Assembly: GCF_000015205.1 (NCBI RefSeq)
Contig: NC_008701.1
Coordinates: forward strand, 62,001-126,000
Source: Pyrobaculum islandicum DSM 4184
GTDB taxonomy: Archaea; Thermoproteota; Thermoprotei; Thermoproteales; Thermoproteaceae
Direction: 5' to 3'
Length of the DNA stretch: 64,000 nucleotides
Positions 21,512 to 31,033 of the stretch are shown piece by piece. The notes beneath the pieces were generated by a model. That model was not told the origin of the DNA, made no database searches, and saw nothing but the letters and a program-made list of their open reading frames with translations. Position numbers and translations under genes: made by a program. Position 1 is the first letter of the stretch; each line of letters starts with the position of its first letter.

Positions 21512-22225
21512 GTGGGCTGCATCAGGGCTGAGGGGCTTGTCAAGAGGTTCGGCTCAGTTGCGGCCCTTAGCGGAGTGAGCTTCGAGGTGGGGTGCGGTGA
21601 GTCAGTGGCCCTCCTCGGCCCCAACGGCGCTGGCAAGTCCACGACTCTCAGAATCCTCGCCGGTCTCTTGAAGCCAGACGCAGGGAGGGCGGCCGTCTGT
21701 GGCTATGATGTACAGGCGAGGCCTAGGGAGGCCAAGGCGTGCCTCGGCTTTCTGCCCGAGGATGCCGTGCCCTTCCTAAACCTAACTGTCAGAGAGAACC
21801 TCCAGTACATGGCGGTGCTCCGGGGCCTCCCCGACTCGGCGGTGGACGAGGCGCTTAAGCTCCTCGGCATAGAGGAGCTGGCAGACCGGACCGCCGCCTC
21901 GCTCTCAAGGGGCAATAGGCAGAGGCTGGCCATCGCGCTGGCAGTGATGCACAAGCCGAGGGTCCTCCTCCTCGACGAGCCACTGAACTACCTCGACATC
22001 CCGGCGCAACAAGACTCCGTCAAGCTCTTCCAGTCGTTGAAGTCGTCGGGGTCGGCCATATTCGTCTCGACGCATATAATGTCGGTGGCCGAGAGGCTCG
22101 CGGACAAAGCCCTAGTAATAAACAGGGGGAGGATAGTCTGGCAGGGGCCAATGGACGAGCTTAGGGAGAAGGCGGCCGACGCGGGCGAGAGGATAGAGGA
22201 CGTGGTGGCCCGCCTGATGAGATGA
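21512..22225 (+). CDS. ABC exporter ATP-binding protein (ABC-2 / CcmA type)
   Basis: 237 residues from GTG 21512. Walker A GPNGAGKST (36-44), signature LSRGNRQR, Walker B VLLLDEPLNYLD, switch His in VSTHIM. This is the drug/lipid exporter ATPase type that pairs with ABC-2 permeases. The stop overlaps the permease start by four bases (22222-22225). A palindrome in the promoter suggests control by a repressor. Cargo unknown. Confidence 0.88.
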   Translation: MGCIRAEGLVKRFGSVAALSGVSFEVGCGESVALLGPNGAGKSTTLRILAGLLKPDAGRAAVCGYDVQARPREAKACLGFLPEDAVPFLNLTVRENLQYMAVLRGLPDSAVDEALKLLGIEELADRTAASLSRGNRQRLAIALAVMHKPRVLLLDEPLNYLDIPAQQDSVKLFQSLKSSGSAIFVSTHIMSVAERLADKALVINRGRIVWQGPMDELREKAADAGERIEDVVARLMR

Positions 22226-23721
22226 GGTTCCTCAAGCTGGTGTACTACACCATTAAACAGACCCACTCAAAGTGGAGCTTAGCTTTCGAGATAGGCATGT
22301 TCGCCTTAATTTCTGCAAATACGCTGTGGGAGGTATATCACAACCCACAGCAAGGTACAGCTTCCCTGCCCATGAGCGTGCCGTTCGTGCTACTATCGTT
22401 GTACCTGGGTTTCTCTATCGTGGCGATCTTCGGCGGCATAACGGCGAGTAAACAAGACCTCGACTTCGTCTTCGCTACACCTGTAGATCCAAGGGCGGTG
22501 CACCTAGCTAAAGTCCTATCCGCCTCCATAGATTTGGCATTATTTTACTTTATTGTCTCTTTCCCAGTGATGGCGTTGAACTTCTCGCCGGTTGGCCTCC
22601 TTTTCTACTTGGCCACTTGGCTCTCGTTAAGTTTTACATCTGCATTTGCGGTATTAACCGCTTCGTATCTGTCCAGCAGATTAGCACGCGTTTTCTACGT
22701 CGGCATACTGCCCGCTCTCGTCTTGTTGCTATTAGTAGCCCCGGAGATGTCGCCCTTCCGGGGGTTGTACTATCCGTCTCCTCTCCACGCCCTCGAGGCG
22801 ATAATGTTGACCGTGGCGTATCTCGCAACTGCTCCCTATAAGAGGATCGAAGAGGTGGCTACGAACGCATACGGCATATTGGCCAAAGAGCAGGCGCTTA
22901 GGTTGGGCGGGAGGGGAGAGAGACCACAGGCTTTGCCTAAGACCTTCTGGGGGGTCATATGGCACACCTCTGTCAACGCGGTGGTGGACGTATATTATAC
23001 ATCTCCCGAGGGGTCTATAGTTCGGCGTGAGAAGAGTTTTAACGTGCTCAAAACATTTATGCCGATCTCAGCGGCGGCCGCCGCAGTATATGCCTTTCTT
23101 TCCACCGCCCACATTACAAGCGGCGTCGATTTATCAATAGCTGGGTTTATTGTTGTTAACTTTCTGCTGCTTTTCGTTTTTTCAGCTCTACACCAGGCGG
23201 TTGCCCATGAAAGGCTCTGGATTAGTGTTTTGTCCGGCGGCTTGAAGTACCTGCGGTATAGGATGGCGGCTAGGACCATTATCACGGCTTTGCTATTGGT
23301 CCCGTGGATAGCTGTGTTTTTGGCGCAGAGCGCCGTCTTTCCGCCGTCTGCCTTCTTAGCGGTTGTCTTGGCGTCGGCGGCGCTTGTAGCCCCCAGCGCC
23401 ACCTGGCTCATGGCCTCCGTCAAGCCGCCCCCGCAGATTAGGGAGTTGGAAATTCCCATCACAACGCCTAAGCTCTCGCTCTGGAACATCCTCCAGCTCC
23501 TCGCAGCGCTCCTCTATTACTCCTTCTCCCTGTCTCCCTACGCGCTGGCGGTTGTTGCTTACTTCCTCAAGCTGGAGTTCCTCTGGCAGATAGCCCTGAT
23601 AGACGCGGCCGTTGTGCTGTCCCTCTCGGCGGCCTTCTTCTACGTCGTGGTTTTGTCCGAGAGGGGGGCTCCGCTATGGAGCTGGGCTGTGAGCAAGCTG
23701 TCGGAGAACGGCTACGTGTGA
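22222..23721 (+). CDS. ABC-2-like exporter permease
   Basis: 499 residues with about twelve hydrophobic segments in two groups, separated by a cytoplasmic loop (about 205-270) containing ALRLGGRGERPQALP. It starts with FLKLVYYTIKQTHSKW, an amphipathic coupling helix as in ABC-2 permeases. The start is coupled to the ATPase gene. Together they should export a substrate across the cytoplasmic membrane. Family is recognised by architecture only. The 3' end overlaps a convergent PaREP1 gene by ten bases. Confidence 0.7.
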   Translation: MRFLKLVYYTIKQTHSKWSLAFEIGMFALISANTLWEVYHNPQQGTASLPMSVPFVLLSLYLGFSIVAIFGGITASKQDLDFVFATPVDPRAVHLAKVLSASIDLALFYFIVSFPVMALNFSPVGLLFYLATWLSLSFTSAFAVLTASYLSSRLARVFYVGILPALVLLLLVAPEMSPFRGLYYPSPLHALEAIMLTVAYLATAPYKRIEEVATNAYGILAKEQALRLGGRGERPQALPKTFWGVIWHTSVNAVVDVYYTSPEGSIVRREKSFNVLKTFMPISAAAAAVYAFLSTAHITSGVDLSIAGFIVVNFLLLFVFSALHQAVAHERLWISVLSGGLKYLRYRMAARTIITALLLVPWIAVFLAQSAVFPPSAFLAVVLASAALVAPSATWLMASVKPPPQIRELEIPITTPKLSLWNILQLLAALLYYSFSLSPYALAVVAYFLKLEFLWQIALIDAAVVLSLSAAFFYVVVLSERGAPLWSWAVSKLSENGYV

Positions 23722-24221
23722 GAGCTCCGTAGCAAGGCCTTAGTCGTCTCCAAGAGCTTCTCTATCTGCGACGCGGCGGCTTTGACGTGTTCTACAGCCA
23801 ACGTGGCCTCGTGGAAGCCCCATACGTGTAGGTCGTACGCCACGCTCCAGCCGATGTTGATCTGGGGCTGGTTCAACATGGCGCTGAGGGTCTTCGCCGC
23901 TCTGGCCAAGAGCTTAGTCCACCACCTCCCCTCTCTCCTTGCCTCAGCCGCCTCCGGAGTCTTGAACCACGTAGCCAGAGCCTTTATGCACTCCTCAGCG
24001 GCTTTATACAGCTTCCCGCTTGCCTGCACGGGGTTGCCCCTCTCGACGTACTGCATGGCCTCGGCGTAGAACCTCTCTGCCAGCCTAACCCTCTCCGCCG
24101 CCTCCTCAGGCGGATCCAGTTCAGACAACAACCTGTCTAAAACCTCGGCCTCTACGTCAACGCCGCGTCTAGACAGCAGTTCGTAGACCGGCTTCGGGAT
24201 CTTGATTTCTACAAACTCCAC
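23712..24221 (-). CDS. PaREP1-family protein
   Basis: 169 residues. LAERFYAEAMQYVERGNPVQASGKLYKAAEE (about 47-77) is the hallmark helical-hairpin pattern of PaREP1, a multicopy family in Pyrobaculum and other crenarchaea whose helical fold resembles HEPN/TPR-like proteins. N-terminal residues (EIKIPKPVYELLSRRG) form a short strand-helix unit that often precedes the family domain. The function is unknown. The gene converges on the ABC permease (ten-base overlap). TATA-like TTTATAAATAAATAA (24238-24251) lies before the ATG at 24221. Confidence 0.75.
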   Translation of the reverse strand: MEFVEIKIPKPVYELLSRRGVDVEAEVLDRLLSELDPPEEAAERVRLAERFYAEAMQYVERGNPVQASGKLYKAAEECIKALATWFKTPEAAEARREGRWWTKLLARAAKTLSAMLNQPQINIGWSVAYDLHVWGFHEATLAVEHVKAAASQIEKLLETTKALLRSSHT

Positions 24222-25115: not shown

Positions 25116-25625
25116 TTAGATTTTGCCGTGTAGATACCACTGAAATATTACGATGTTCTTCTCCACGGTTTCTGGGTGTACTCCAAACTCTTCGGCTGTT
25201 CTAATGGAGTCGTATCTAAGTCCGTGTTTTTTAGCGGCGTAGTATAGGAGGGCGGCGATTACGCCCTCTGGCTTGAGGCCGTCTAACGCGCCTTTAGACT
25301 TGAGGAAGTTGTAGAGGTTTTTTACCTCTTCTGCAATAGCCACGCCGTATTTCCCCCTCACTTGTTCAAGTAGTTGCTCAACGCGGTCTCTGGGATAACG
25401 AACTCCCTCTTGGTAGAGCTTTGCGTACCATTTATATACGCAGAGAAGAGATACGCCGTACTTAACCGCAATCTTATCTATAGAAGTCGCCTCGCCAAGT
25501 CTCTTTTTACATAGATATTCAACAGCCGCAAGAAAACACTTGTCTCCCTCTACGCCTATGTTAAAAACTACATCTTCTATACAACGTGTGAGGGGGTCTT
25601 CTCTCCGTTGCCAATAGGAAAACAT
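25116..25625 (-). CDS. TFIIB-like cyclin-fold protein without zinc ribbon
   Basis: 169 residues. The segment KPEGVIAALLYYAAKKHG (about 119-136) followed by AEEFGVHPETVEKNI matches the core of a TFIIB cyclin repeat, where R/K-P-x-x-I-A-A-A-x-x-Y precedes a DNA-facing helix. The N-terminal half (AAVEYLCKKRLGEATSIDKIAVKYGV) reads as a second, shorter repeat. The N-terminal zinc ribbon and B-reader of normal TFB are absent. It could bind TBP-promoter DNA without recruiting polymerase and so act as a regulator; that is inference. It is divergent from purP with starts 73 bases apart. Weak similarity to other helix-turn-helix proteins cannot be ruled out. Confidence 0.5.
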   Translation of the reverse strand: MFSYWQRREDPLTRCIEDVVFNIGVEGDKCFLAAVEYLCKKRLGEATSIDKIAVKYGVSLLCVYKWYAKLYQEGVRYPRDRVEQLLEQVRGKYGVAIAEEVKNLYNFLKSKGALDGLKPEGVIAALLYYAAKKHGLRYDSIRTAEEFGVHPETVEKNIVIFQWYLHGKI

Positions 25626-25697
25626 ATTGAAATGTTACGTCAGACTTATATCTTTGTCGCCATACAAAAATTCAAAAGTCTTCAACATCTGGAGCAC

Positions 25698-26699
25698 ATG
25701 TCTGTATTAAAGAGATATGACTTAGAAAAACTTGCTGTAGCAACAGTGGCGTCTCATACTGCATTACAAATTCTGAGGGGGGCAAAGAAATATGGTTTTA
25801 GGACTATTGCGATAGCGGGTAGAGCCGACGTCGCCGAATTTTACCAACAGTTTAACTTCATAGACGAAGTGTGGACTGTAGACTTTAGAAATTTTGTAAA
25901 AGCGGCTGAAAAACTGGTAGAAGCCAATGCAGTTTTTATACCACATGGCTCTTACGTAGAATACGTCGGCTGGAGACAGGCGCTGGAGGCGCCGGTTCCC
26001 ACCCTCGGCTGTAGAGAGTTAATCAAGTGGGAGGCAGATCAGTACAAGAAGATGGAGCTCCTCCAGAGAGGCGGCATCCCCACGTCGAGGGTCTACAAAA
26101 CGCCGGAGGAGGTGGATAGGCCCGTCATAGTTAAGCTCTTCGGCGCCAAGGGGGGCAGGGGGTACTTCCTCGCTAGAGATAGAGAGGAGCTGAGGAGGAG
26201 GCTGGCCGGCTTGAGCGACTACATTATCCAGGAGTACGTATTCGGCGTGCCGGCCTACTACCATTACTTCTCCTCGCCGGTCTACGGCAGGGTGGAGGTC
26301 TTTGGCGCAGACATTAGGTACGAGTCTAACGTAGACGGGAGGACCTTCGGCTGGGTAGAGCCCACTTTCGTCGTCGTGGGCAACCTCCCCCTGGTTCTTA
26401 GGGAGTCTTTACTCCCAACGATATGGAAGTACGGCGTCCAGTTTGCCAAAGCCGTCGAGGAGGTGGTCGGCTGCAGACTTGCGGGGCCCTACTGCCTGGA
26501 GTCTATAATAAGAGACGACATGTCAATCTCAGTCTTCGAGTTCTCTGGGCGGATTGTGGCTGGGACGAACATATACATGGGCTACGGCTCGCCCTACTCA
26601 GTCCTCTACTTCGACAGGCCTATGGACATGGGGGAGAGGATAGCCCACGAGATAAGGGAGGCCGCCCGGAGGGGCCGCCTAGAGGATCTCTTCACGTAG
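25698..26699 (+). CDS. purP: FAICAR synthetase PurP, paralogue 1
   Basis: 333 residues from the ATG at 25698; the frame is open further upstream but that part overlaps the divergent gene and promoter. Formate- and ATP-dependent ligase that converts AICAR to FAICAR, replacing folate-dependent PurH formylation in archaea. ATP-grasp features: [18 protein letters not shown] (about 137-154), IIQEYVFGV, and near the C-terminus [15 protein letters not shown] with metal-binding Glu/Asn. N-terminal [18 protein letters not shown] is the family's nucleotide-binding start. TATA-like CTTATATCTTT (25648-25658). Its last eight bases overlap the convergent second paralogue. Confidence 0.88.
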
Positions 26700-27732
26700 T
26701 AATTTCAGGGAGTCTCCCCTGCTCGGCGGCTTCGCGGATCTCCATAGCTATCCTCCTCCCTATCGATATCGGTTTGCCGAAGTAGAGCTTGGAGTACTGC
26801 CCCCCGATCCCAATGTATACGTTAGTGCCGCCGCCTATCCTCGGCGCGACGTCGTAAACCACGAGGTCCAGCTGGGGTGTCACAATGAACTGAAGGGTGA
26901 AAGGCCCGATCACCCCCGGGGGGACGAGACGGCGTGCCGCCTCCACAAATCTGTAGCCGACGTCGAACACCTTCTCGAGGAGGGACTCTCGTATTGTCGC
27001 AGGCTCGTGGCCCACCTCTATATACCTCACCTCAGGGTCTACCTCCAGCTGGTCTCTGGCAGGCAGGCGGAACACCCCATCTAGGTTGCTCTGTATCCTC
27101 CTGTCGAAACTGTGTAACTCAAGCCGTCTCCTCATGACTGAGTAGAAGTAGTTGGCGTTGAAATGGGCCCCGAGGACCAGCTCCTCGATGGAAGACCGCT
27201 CTAAGTCCTCCAGCTTTATCACTCCGGCGTCTGCCAGACGTTTGGCCTTTCTGTATAGGTCGTCGCGGTCGCGGGCGATGAAGAACCCCCTCTCGACCCT
27301 CCTCTCCGCCTCTGGCATTTTGACGATAACTGGGCGGTCCACCTCGTCCGGTCTAAAAGTCCTAGGCCGCCTTATCCCTGCCTCGTCTAGCAAACGGTAG
27401 TAGTTCTGAGGCCCCGTCCTCTCCTCCCACCTTAGTAGGAACCGGTTCCCGAAGATCGGCACTGGGAACTCTCTCTCTATGGCGTCGTAGCCCACATATA
27501 CTGCGAAAGATCTATTTGGGACAAAAACCGCCTCCTCGGCCTTTAATAAGTCTACGATCTTCAATATGTCTCTATAGTCATCTAATACAATTAGCTTGTC
27601 TACCACGGGGAACTCTCTGTAGGCCCTCTCCCTCCCCTTCTTTGCTATAGCCACTGTCTTCAGCCCTTCGTCTCTGGCGCCATCTAACACGTCTAATGCG
27701 CTATGGGACGCCAACACAGCCACAGAAACCAT
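26692..27732 (-). CDS. purP: FAICAR synthetase PurP, paralogue 2
   Basis: 346 residues from the ATG at 27732; sixteen extra codons upstream are in frame but lie on the TATA-like TCTATAAACT (about 27750-27759). Same ATP-grasp family as the neighbour: VASH-type start ([20 protein letters not shown]), [18 protein letters not shown] where the glycine-rich loop is less regular, and [18 protein letters not shown] near the C-terminus. Two PurP copies are known in several hyperthermophiles; the enzyme may act as a hetero-oligomer or one copy may have shifted function. The altered glycine loop favours some divergence. The gene converges on paralogue 1 with overlapping stops and shares a 76-base divergent region with hemA. 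Confidence 0.82.
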
Positions 27733-27793
27733 AGACAGAAGTAAGCAACAGTTTATAGACATTTCTTTGTATAATATCACTTAAATAGCTGTA

Positions 27794-29127: not shown

Positions 29128-29240
29128 CTCACACATCGCTCTACTGTCGCCCAAGCGCGGCCTGGCCTATATAAACGTTGGCCATCTACAACTACGCCAT
29201 AGGCGTGGCAAAACTTTTAACTAGATGCGCCGCCAATTGT

Positions 29241-29708
29241 ATGGCCATAACACTTTCTCCCGCAGTAGCAGAGCTTTTGAAGAGGGCGGCTGGGGACCGG
29301 GATGTAGAGGCTTTTCTCGCAGATCTGTTGGCCGGGAGGCTCGACCCGCCCGAGCGCGTCGAGCTGTATCTCCGCCTACACGAGAAATACCTCAGGGAGG
29401 CCGAGGAGCTGTATAGAGGGGGCGATCTTGTACAAGCCGGCGAGAGGTACTGGGGCGCGGTCACAGCCCTGCTGAACGCGTTGGCCAAGAAAAGGGGAGA
29501 GCCTCACTACAGCCACAGAGACTATGCGGTGCTAATCGACAGACTGTACAGAGAGACAAAAGACAGAGAACTCGTCACGGCGTTCGCCATGGCGGAAAGG
29601 CTACATGCCAACTTCTACCGCAACTTCCTCTCGCCGGAGGGCTTTGAAGTCCACAGGGAGTCCGCGCTGAGGCTCGTGGAGAAGCTAAAAAAGCTGGCCG
29701 AGACCTAG
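29241..29708 (+). CDS. PaREP1-family protein
   Basis: 155 residues from the ATG at 29241; 21 more codons are open upstream, but the TATA-like ACTTTTAACT (29213-29222) favours this start. LRLHEKYLREAEELYRGGDLVQAGERYWGAVTALLNALA (split here: EKYLREAEELYRGGD, then VQAGERYWGAV) is the PaREP1 helical hairpin. The protein is all-helical and soluble. Function unknown. Its stop overlaps the stop of the convergent Tat-exported protein by four bases. Confidence 0.75.
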   Translation: MAITLSPAVAELLKRAAGDRDVEAFLADLLAGRLDPPERVELYLRLHEKYLREAEELYRGGDLVQAGERYWGAVTALLNALAKKRGEPHYSHRDYAVLIDRLYRETKDRELVTAFAMAERLHANFYRNFLSPEGFEVHRESALRLVEKLKKLAET

Positions 29709-31033
29709 GCGTCTACGACCTCGGCTATAGTGACTAGGGGCTTAAAGACGTAGTCCTTGAGATAGTGAACAAACGCGGCTCTGTAAACCCTAAGGGCGTA
29801 CTTGGCGCCCGGGGCGGCGTCTGTTGAAACCTTTGCTATATAGTTGGCAACAGCTCCATACGCCTGGAAGTTGAAGCCTGCGTATAGTTTCTTTATAAGG
29901 GACGCCACCGTGCTGGGGACTTTGTTGGCGATGAGATCGCCAACGGGAAGGCCCACCCCCAGTGTTCCACCGACGTCTAGAAGAGGCTCATTTTTCATAA
30001 TCTCGAGGTACCAAAGTGTGTTATAATCTCCCAATTTGCCGTCTATCCCCGTGTAGGTGCGGGTCTCCGCGGGGCTGATGGAGGTCGGCATCTTTGGGAT
30101 GTAGCCAACTGACCTAAGCGCAATGTTCCCGTTTTCAAAGGCGAGGTTTAGCATGTATAAACTGGCGCGTGTGTCAACCACATTGCATGTGTAGATATCA
30201 TATACGTCGTAGCCGATGACCCTCCATATTGAAGAGTAGAACATCACAGCCGCCGACTGCCCGTCGGCTGGGGCGTAGCCTCCGCTACCTTGCGATATTA
30301 GGTTGCCCGTGCCCCAGCTGTACTCTCCGGTTATTCTAAGCTCTGTGCCCCACTTCAAGCTAAGTGCACCGTAGGCGTTTAACTTTAGAGCGCTACCGTC
30401 TACTTTGTAGCCGAACCAGATATCTTCGCCGAAGGCTTTTGAAGACGAGTCTTTTAGGGCGACTGCCGGCACGTAATCTGGATCCGTGAGATTGACGTCT
30501 GAGATGTAAAACACCTTGGCCTCTGGACAAGTCGCAAATCTATGGCCGGTGCTCCTCCTGGCGGCCCCCCTCACTCTATATACTCTGCTCCTCAACGCCG
30601 GCCTCTCAATTACGTCTGTGTAAAACAGCGGCTCCGCGGGCGCGGTGGGCAGTATGGTAAACAGGGCGTGTTCCGTAGACGTAGGGTTGTCTCTCCTCAG
30701 CTGTTCTTCAACCCAGCTCTCGGCCTGTCTCTTAACTCTCCTCTTGTCTAGCCTAAGGACGCCGTCTTTTACAGCCACCTCCTCCACAACGCCATCTGGC
30801 TCCCACACCAGAAGTGCGTTGAAGTCTACAGGTCTGTCGAACTCGTCTACGAACTTGAGCTCCACCACGTCGTCGTTACTTGCGAATTCAGATACCCGCT
30901 CAAACCAGTAGCTCCTCGTCTGCGGCCTCGCCGCGTTTTTCAAGACGCCTAGGAGTTGCCAGCCGCCAACCGCCGCAACCGCGCCTGCCACGCCCAACGT
31001 GAGGAGTCTTCTCCTGGTGATCCCCCACCCCAT
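29705..31033 (-). CDS. Tat-exported protein of unknown function
   Basis: 442 residues. The N-terminus GITRRRLLTLGVAGAVAAVGG is a twin-arginine signal (Arg 7-9 followed by a hydrophobic stretch), so the protein should be exported folded. The rest is beta-rich with aromatic and Gly-rich stretches (EYSWGTGNLISQGSGG) and a helical C-terminal quarter. No catalytic motif or cofactor site is recognised. It resembles fast-evolving exported proteins restricted to Pyrobaculum. Monocistronic between a convergent PaREP1 gene and purK. Confidence 0.6.
   Translation of the reverse strand: MGWGITRRRLLTLGVAGAVAAVGGWQLLGVLKNAARPQTRSYWFERVSEFASNDDVVELKFVDEFDRPVDFNALLVWEPDGVVEEVAVKDGVLRLDKRRVKRQAESWVEEQLRRDNPTSTEHALFTILPTAPAEPLFYTDVIERPALRSRVYRVRGAARRSTGHRFATCPEAKVFYISDVNLTDPDYVPAVALKDSSSKAFGEDIWFGYKVDGSALKLNAYGALSLKWGTELRITGEYSWGTGNLISQGSGGYAPADGQSAAVMFYSSIWRVIGYDVYDIYTCNVVDTRASLYMLNLAFENGNIALRSVGYIPKMPTSISPAETRTYTGIDGKLGDYNTLWYLEIMKNEPLLDVGGTLGVGLPVGDLIANKVPSTVASLIKKLYAGFNFQAYGAVANYIAKVSTDAAPGAKYALRVYRAAFVHYLKDYVFKPLVTIAEVVDA

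What the first reader, a model, noticed from the sequence alone, without database searches (positions are those of the whole stretch)
25116..25625. Ribbon-less TFIIB-like protein facing a purine gene
The protein has TFIIB-type cyclin-repeat features but no zinc ribbon or B-reader, so it could compete with TFB at promoters rather than recruit polymerase. It shares a 73-base divergent region with purP at the edge of the purine cluster. A cyclin-only TFB paralogue as a regulator would be unusual.
Basis: inference. Interest (0 to 1): 0.55.

Follow-up and report, generated by a model that had tools for sequence, protein, structure and literature searches.

The report
Ribbon-less TFB relative in Pyrobaculum
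A small archaeal protein is built like the DNA- and TBP-binding half of the general transcription factor TFB but lacks the part that recruits RNA polymerase, so it is probably a stripped-down TFB turned into a regulator; its place beside a purine gene looks like an accident of later gene loss.

Summary
The ORF is real: 169 aa, with full-length relatives in 6 of 11 genomes of its genus (itself included), which is Pyrobaculum by a named relative. The fold claim holds. AlphaFold models of the whole protein and of its N-terminal half both match the archaeal TFB core best. The C-terminal half is a five-helix cyclin repeat. The N-terminal half is a four-helix one without the first helix. There is no zinc ribbon and no room for a B-reader.

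The purine link does not hold up well. In three relatives a 2-hydroxyacid dehydrogenase and a TPP enzyme stand between the gene and purP. A fourth relative keeps a deletion scar of that pair. Direct contact with purP is therefore most likely secondary.

Simple competition with TFB at BREs is also weakened. The recognition-helix Arg, kept in 47 of 47 TFB1/2/3 rows, is lost in 6 of 6 here.

Best reading: a ribbon-less, TFB-core-derived regulator with altered DNA recognition, unable to recruit polymerase by itself. Function is inferred only. All six carry exactly four cysteines, all in the N-terminal repeat. New variant of a known kind.

The parts
25116..25625 (-). ribbon-less TFB-like gene (called TFBL here), 169 aa
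25401..25601 (-). N-terminal repeat (residues 9-75): four helices matching helices 2-5 of a TFB cyclin repeat
25410..25481 (-). helix-turn-helix pair of the N-terminal repeat (residues 49-72); also matched weakly by Pfam HTH_28
25440..25583 (-). stretch with the only four cysteines (C15, C30, C39, C62), invariant in 6 of 6 relatives
25119..25397 (-). C-terminal repeat (residues 77-169): five-helix cyclin fold, Pfam TFIIB match at residues 96-156
25128..25175 (-). last (recognition) helix, residues 151-166; Glu152 and Glu155 stand where TFB1 has Val and Arg
25645..25652 (-). TATA-like box about 25 bases before the TFBL start; a TATA-like sequence stands 25-28 bases before the start in 6 of 6 relatives
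   Evidence: read by eye from the sequences printed
25671..25678 (+). weak TATA-like sequence about 27 bases before the purP start
   Evidence: read by eye from the sequence printed; inference
25626..25697 (.). 72-base divergent region between TFBL and purP
25698..26699 (+). purP paralogue 1 (true start by homology; the ORF list begins it at 25608)
26692..27780 (-). purP paralogue 2, convergent with paralogue 1

Best explanation
TFBL is a TFB core that has lost its zinc ribbon, B-reader and the first helix of its first cyclin repeat. Without the ribbon it should not dock RNA polymerase, so it cannot act as an initiation factor alone. Most likely it binds DNA, perhaps next to TBP, through the helix-turn-helix units that end its two repeats, with a specificity that differs from the normal BRE, and so changes initiation at particular promoters, more likely by blocking than by activating. 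Shown here: real, constrained gene; predicted cyclin folds; no ribbon; altered recognition helix; full-length relatives only in Pyrobaculum among the genomes searched; own TATA-like box; position behind a dehydrogenase/TPP-enzyme pair in three genomes and behind its scar in a fourth. Inferred: DNA binding, repression, targets. The pairing with purP is probably not its function.
For: Fold: the two-sequence AF2 model (pLDDT 81.3, pTM 0.53) has the archaeal TFB core as best PDB match (1d3u_B: Foldseek E 3.4e-5; VIA Z 14.6, 157 residues, rmsd 6.9 over both domains). The N-terminal half alone (pLDDT 80.9) again has TFB first (1ais_B: Z 9.5, rmsd 2.0, 69 residues). Profile comparison with Thermoproteales TFB1 runs through both repeats in register (124 columns); 0 of 60 column shuffles reach the score. 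No ribbon in 6 of 6. Altered recognition: the helix Arg is present in 19 of 19 TFB1, 14 of 14 TFB2 and 14 of 14 TFB3 rows and replaced by Glu/Ala/Val in 6 of 6 TFBL. Net basic, pI 8.6-8.9. A TATA-like box 25-28 bases before the start in 6 of 6 (by eye). Distribution: 6 full-length hits in 398 phylum genomes.
Against: The Pfam match is below the curated cut-off. hhalign probability for TFB1 is only 62-71%. The models rest on two sequences. The TFBL stem in the tree is very long (2.44 changes per column), so descent from TFB is likely rather than proven. Acid residues at recognition-helix positions could mean that DNA binding was lost. No conserved operator was seen in the upstream regions beyond TATA-like sequences (by eye). 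The best profile match is TFB3's single repeat, not TFB1.
Confidence: 0.45

Rival explanations
1. One reading: TFBL binds TBP-promoter complexes like the TFB core and blocks TFB, acting as a natural dominant negative at TATA promoters, purP among them.
For: Fold of both TFB repeats; no ribbon; 72-base divergent region with purP in this genome. That a core without ribbon can bind TBP-DNA but not polymerase is recalled from TFIIB work.
Against: BRE-reading Arg and Val replaced in 6 of 6; helix 1 of repeat 1 apparently missing; purP is not the direct neighbour in 3 of 6 genomes and only by deletion in a fourth; purP is present in 19 of 19 family genomes but TFBL in 6 of those 19.
Confidence: 0.25
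2. TFBL is a partner factor that works through TFB1 or TBP without reading DNA, in the manner of Sulfolobus TFB3, or acts as a protein-binding cyclin-like scaffold.
For: Best profile match is the single repeat of the Thermoproteaceae TFB3 (probability 92-95%); acid residues in the recognition helix; TFB3 activates in trans with TFB1-TBP-DNA (PMC3189178 and PMC7289017, passages read).
Against: TFB3 has a ribbon (14 of 14 rows) and TFBL does not, so the architectures are opposite.
Confidence: 0.15
3. TFBL was the regulator of the dehydrogenase/TPP-enzyme operon and is now a relic, or reassigned, in the genomes that lost the operon, including this one.
For: Order dehydrogenase-TPP enzyme-TFBL in 3 genomes with a gap of 19-25 bases; scar in a fourth; dN five times that of purP between window and G004 (0.162 against 0.031).
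Against: The ORF is intact in the three genomes without the pair; TFBL is absent in two genus genomes that keep the pair (G002, G005) and in G011 and G014, which also keep it; own TATA-like box in 6 of 6.
Confidence: 0.12

Closest known systems
Archaeal TFB / TFIIB core (PDB 1d3u, 1ais)
   Same: Two cyclin-like repeats ending in helix-turn-helix units; best structural match for the whole and for the N-terminal half
   Different: No zinc ribbon, no B-reader or linker, helix 1 of repeat 1 apparently absent, BRE-reading Arg and Val replaced
TFB3 of Thermoproteaceae and Sulfolobus
   Same: Short TFB paralogue (about 152-175 aa in Thermoproteaceae); its repeat is the closest by profile
   Different: TFB3 of Thermoproteaceae keeps the ribbon and one cyclin repeat; TFBL keeps two repeats and no ribbon
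Arabidopsis AtBRF5 (PMC7865254, passages read)
   Same: TFIIB-like protein without zinc domain
   Different: Has the linker and one cyclin repeat only; eukaryotic; presumably a separate loss
Ribbon-bearing short TFB paralogues of another Thermoproteota family (f26, 271-274 aa)
   Same: The only other proteins in 398 phylum genomes that the TFBL profile finds at E <= 1e-5, across both repeats
   Different: N-terminal zinc ribbon present, recognition-helix Arg present

Membership tests
TFB/TFIIB general transcription factor | N-terminal zinc ribbon | tested here: not met
   No CxxC in the stop-to-stop frames of 6 of 6 relatives
TFB/TFIIB general transcription factor | B-reader/B-linker between ribbon and core | tested here: not met
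   First predicted helix starts at residue 11 of 169; the stop-to-stop frame of the window gene starts three codons before the ATG
TFB/TFIIB general transcription factor | Two five-helix cyclin repeats | tested here: inconclusive
   C-terminal repeat five helices, N-terminal four (helices 2-5), in predicted models only
TFB/TFIIB general transcription factor | BRE-reading Val and Arg of the last helix (human V283, R286; recalled) | tested here: not met
   Glu at the first and Glu/Ala/Val at the second in 6 of 6; the Arg is kept in 47 of 47 TFB1-3 rows
TFB/TFIIB general transcription factor | Binding to TBP-TATA | not testable with these tools
   needs purified protein
Thermoproteaceae TFB3 | Zinc ribbon followed by a single cyclin repeat | tested here: not met
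   TFBL has no ribbon and two predicted repeats
Homeodomain-like/transposase HTH (Pfam HTH_28) | Match over the curated cut-off | tested here: not met
   19.4 bits against 25; TFIIB rows come first when the half is modelled alone
Cyclins (CDK partners) | CDK-binding surface | not tested
   Cyclins appear below TFB in the structural lists

The most novel reading that the evidence does not exclude
A TFB core has been turned into a dedicated, redox- or metal-switched promoter regulator in Pyrobaculum: two TFB repeats without ribbon, a rewritten recognition helix, and four invariant cysteines in the N-terminal repeat that open or lock the fold. This would be a regulator made out of the general initiation factor itself.
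Probability: 0.15. Interest if true: 0.65.

Novelty: new variant of a known kind. Interest (0 to 1): 0.42.

Why it matters
Archaea often carry several TFBs, thought to act somewhat like sigma factors, and shortened ones such as TFB3 are known. A two-repeat core without the polymerase-docking ribbon is the complementary reduction. If it binds promoters it would show how a general factor can become a specific regulator or anti-factor, and it is small enough to test in a purified system.

Tried and rejected
Rejected: chance ORF (five further full-length relatives at 57-76% identity). Rejected: N-terminal half as a plain transposase-type HTH; Pfam HTH_28 is under its cut-off and the half modelled alone gives TFIIB/TFB rows first, although no Foldseek row reached E 0.001 there (best 0.065). 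No support for a viral, phage or plasmid origin: no relative in viral contigs or phages, only two weak plasmid hits, E 0.4 and 0.9. Rejected: relatives in the sister genus; the weak hits in G012 and G013 are ribbon-bearing TFB3 genes.

Led nowhere: remnants of the dehydrogenase or TPP gene between purP and TFBL in the window and in G004 (only chance-level pieces); dN/dS of window against G004 (dS saturated); a text search on the BRE residues (nothing usable), so V283/R286 rest on recall; papers describing this protein: none seen in the listings (open-licence PMC library only). The tree shows TFBL as one clade on a long stem and does not place it reliably among the TFBs.

Full report
What is there. 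The window lies in a 1,826,402-base genome. The ORF at 25116-25625 (-) encodes 169 aa. I call it TFBL.

Relatives. In 19 genomes of the family, 8 match at E <= 0.001. Six of these, all in the genus (6 of 11 genus genomes, the window's own included), are full-length at E <= 1e-59. The other two, G012 and G013, are ribbon-bearing TFB3 genes. The six-row profile, searched in 398 genomes of the phylum at E <= 1e-5, gives 9 hits: the same six plus three in family f26. The f26 proteins are 271-274 aa TFB paralogues; all three begin with a CxxC...CxxC pattern, and the one that I scanned has the Pfam TFIIB ribbon. Nothing was found in viral contigs or phages.

Fold. Two sequences (window and WP30) gave an AF2 model with pLDDT 81.3 and pTM 0.53; mean pLDDT of the five models ran from 65 to 81. 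Helices: 11-23, 29-42, 49-56, 60-72, then 81-93, 95-110, 119-133, 140-146, 151-166. Foldseek ranks the Pyrococcus woesei TFB core first (E 3.4e-5); VIA gives Z 14.6 over 157 residues with rmsd 6.9, the large rmsd being probably due to uncertain domain orientation. The tool warns that helical models can reach such Z by chance, but TFB, TFIIB and Brf chains fill the top of the list. Within the whole model, the C-terminal half fits Brf1 at rmsd 2.4 over 89 residues (row 8ffz_H). The N-terminal half modelled alone gives 1ais_B at Z 9.5, rmsd 2.0, 69 residues; against human TFIIB repeat 1 it aligns from residue 131 to about 205 in several rows, which is why I read it as helices 2-5 of a cyclin repeat without helix 1 (the helix numbering of TFIIB is recalled). 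Foldseek for this half found TFB first but at E 0.065.

Sequence support for TFB descent. Single-sequence and profile searches of PDB sequences rank the P. woesei TFB core first, but only at E about 0.05. Profile comparison with 19 TFB1 sequences aligns residues 32-155 with TFB1 190-316 through both repeats. Score 39.2 against a shuffled maximum of 22.4, 0 of 60; TFB2 39.1, 0 of 60; TFB3 47.2, 0 of 60. The N-terminal repeat alone is weaker: 0 of 60 shuffles reach it for TFB1 repeat 1, TFB1 repeat 2 and TFB2 repeat 1 (the last over 12 columns only), 1 of 60 for TFB3 and 8 of 60 for TFB2 repeat 2. Column shuffling is a lenient control. The tree puts all TFBL on one stem of 2.44 changes per column.

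Missing and altered parts. No CxxC pair in 6 of 6 stop-to-stop frames; ribbon patterns were found in 18 of 19 TFB1 rows (one TFB1 row, L036, is only 276 aa long and is the likely exception), 14 of 14 TFB2 and 14 of 14 TFB3. In the last helix, TFB1 reads V-T-V-R; TFBL reads E-T-V-(E/A/V). The Arg is present in every TFB1, TFB2 and TFB3 row printed (19, 14, 14) and in none of six TFBL rows; the Val is a TFB1 feature and is not kept in all TFB2 and TFB3 rows. In human TFIIB these positions (V283, R286) read the BRE; that is recalled and my paper search did not confirm it.

Cysteines. Each of the six proteins has exactly four, at corresponding places, all in the N-terminal repeat. P. aerophilum proteins are rich in disulfides (PMC3177088, passages read), so stabilising disulfides are the simple explanation; a switch is speculation.

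Genome context. In G003, G006 and G009 (L045, L044, L046) the order is purP, then divergently a D-2-hydroxyacid dehydrogenase, a TPP enzyme of the acetolactate-synthase type (below the cut-off of every NCBIfam model listed) and TFBL 19-25 bases behind, then a convergent serpin (the Pfam serpin match was made on the L044 protein). In G009 the TPP gene is split into two ORFs. In G001 (L047) the space between purP and TFBL holds dehydrogenase residues 4-64 and TPP residues 530-547 in broken frames: a deletion scar. In G004 and the window no remnant is detectable and TFBL directly faces purP. In G002 and G005 the pair lies beside purP without TFBL; in G005 a DUF488 match begins 17 bases after the TPP gene, as expected if TFBL and serpin were deleted together. 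In the window genome the serpin is 0.59 Mb away, so a rearrangement breakpoint probably lies just past TFBL. TFBL thus stays on the purP side in 6 of 6 but touches purP only where the pair is gone. The pair itself (close relatives of about 75% identity or more) occurs in 5 of 11 genus genomes and 2 of 8 others in the family.

Promoters. From the sequences, read by eye, a TATA-like sequence stands 25-28 bases before the TFBL start in 6 of 6, as expected for leaderless transcripts. In the window the two divergent TATA-like boxes (25645-25652 and 25671-25678) are about 20 bases apart, so the two initiation complexes could hardly sit there together; this could give mutual interference without any regulator (inference). 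I saw no operator shared between the window and G004 upstream regions.

Selection. Between window and G004 TFBL dN is 0.162 and dS is saturated; purP has dN 0.031, dS 0.645. G003 against G009: dN/dS 0.088 by NG86. Window against G001 gives 0.167 by NG86 and 0.448 by YN00, so the methods disagree at this distance; many other pairs could not be computed. The gene is constrained but evolves fast.

Interpretation. The purP idea is most likely a by-product of gene loss. The competitor idea remains possible but two features expected for classical TFB-like binding are altered. I favour a TFB-derived DNA-binding regulator with its own specificity.

Relation to known systems. T. tenax TFB3 is described as lacking one cyclin fold (PMC3189178, passages), and Sulfolobus TFB3 activates with TFB1 (same passages and PMC7289017). 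In plants AtBRF5 has linker and one repeat but no zinc domain (PMC7865254, passages). I found no description of a ribbon-less two-repeat archaeal TFB in the listings.

Noticed in passing
G000:C1:848634-849101 (L061:1635-2102), outside the window: Short TFB3-type gene (zinc ribbon plus one cyclin repeat), overlapping by about 20 bases a T2SSE-type secretion ATPase gene; the same pair is visible in 10 of 14 Thermoproteaceae TFB3 loci, the other four loci not showing a complete ATPase ORF.
   Followed up: partly
L047:7640-7831: Scar of a deleted dehydrogenase/TPP-enzyme pair: N-terminal piece of one joined to the C-terminal end of the other.
   Followed up: yes
L120:3516-3533: In G005 a DUF488 gene starts 17 bases after the TPP gene, suggesting one deletion took TFBL and the serpin.
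   Followed up: partly
G000:C1:674688-675884 (L148): The serpin that neighbours TFBL in four relatives lies 0.59 Mb away in the window genome.
   Followed up: no
window 25440-25583: Exactly four cysteines, all invariant and all in the N-terminal repeat, in six of six TFBL proteins.
   Followed up: partly
window 25698-27780: Two purP paralogues about 37% identical stand convergent with an 8-base overlap; two purP-like matches occur in 19 of 19 family genomes searched.
   Followed up: no
window 23712-24221 and 29178-29708: Two PaREP1-family genes flank the region.
   Followed up: no
window 22222-23721 and 29705-31033: Two long proteins (499 and 442 aa) without any Pfam match at E 0.001.
   Followed up: no
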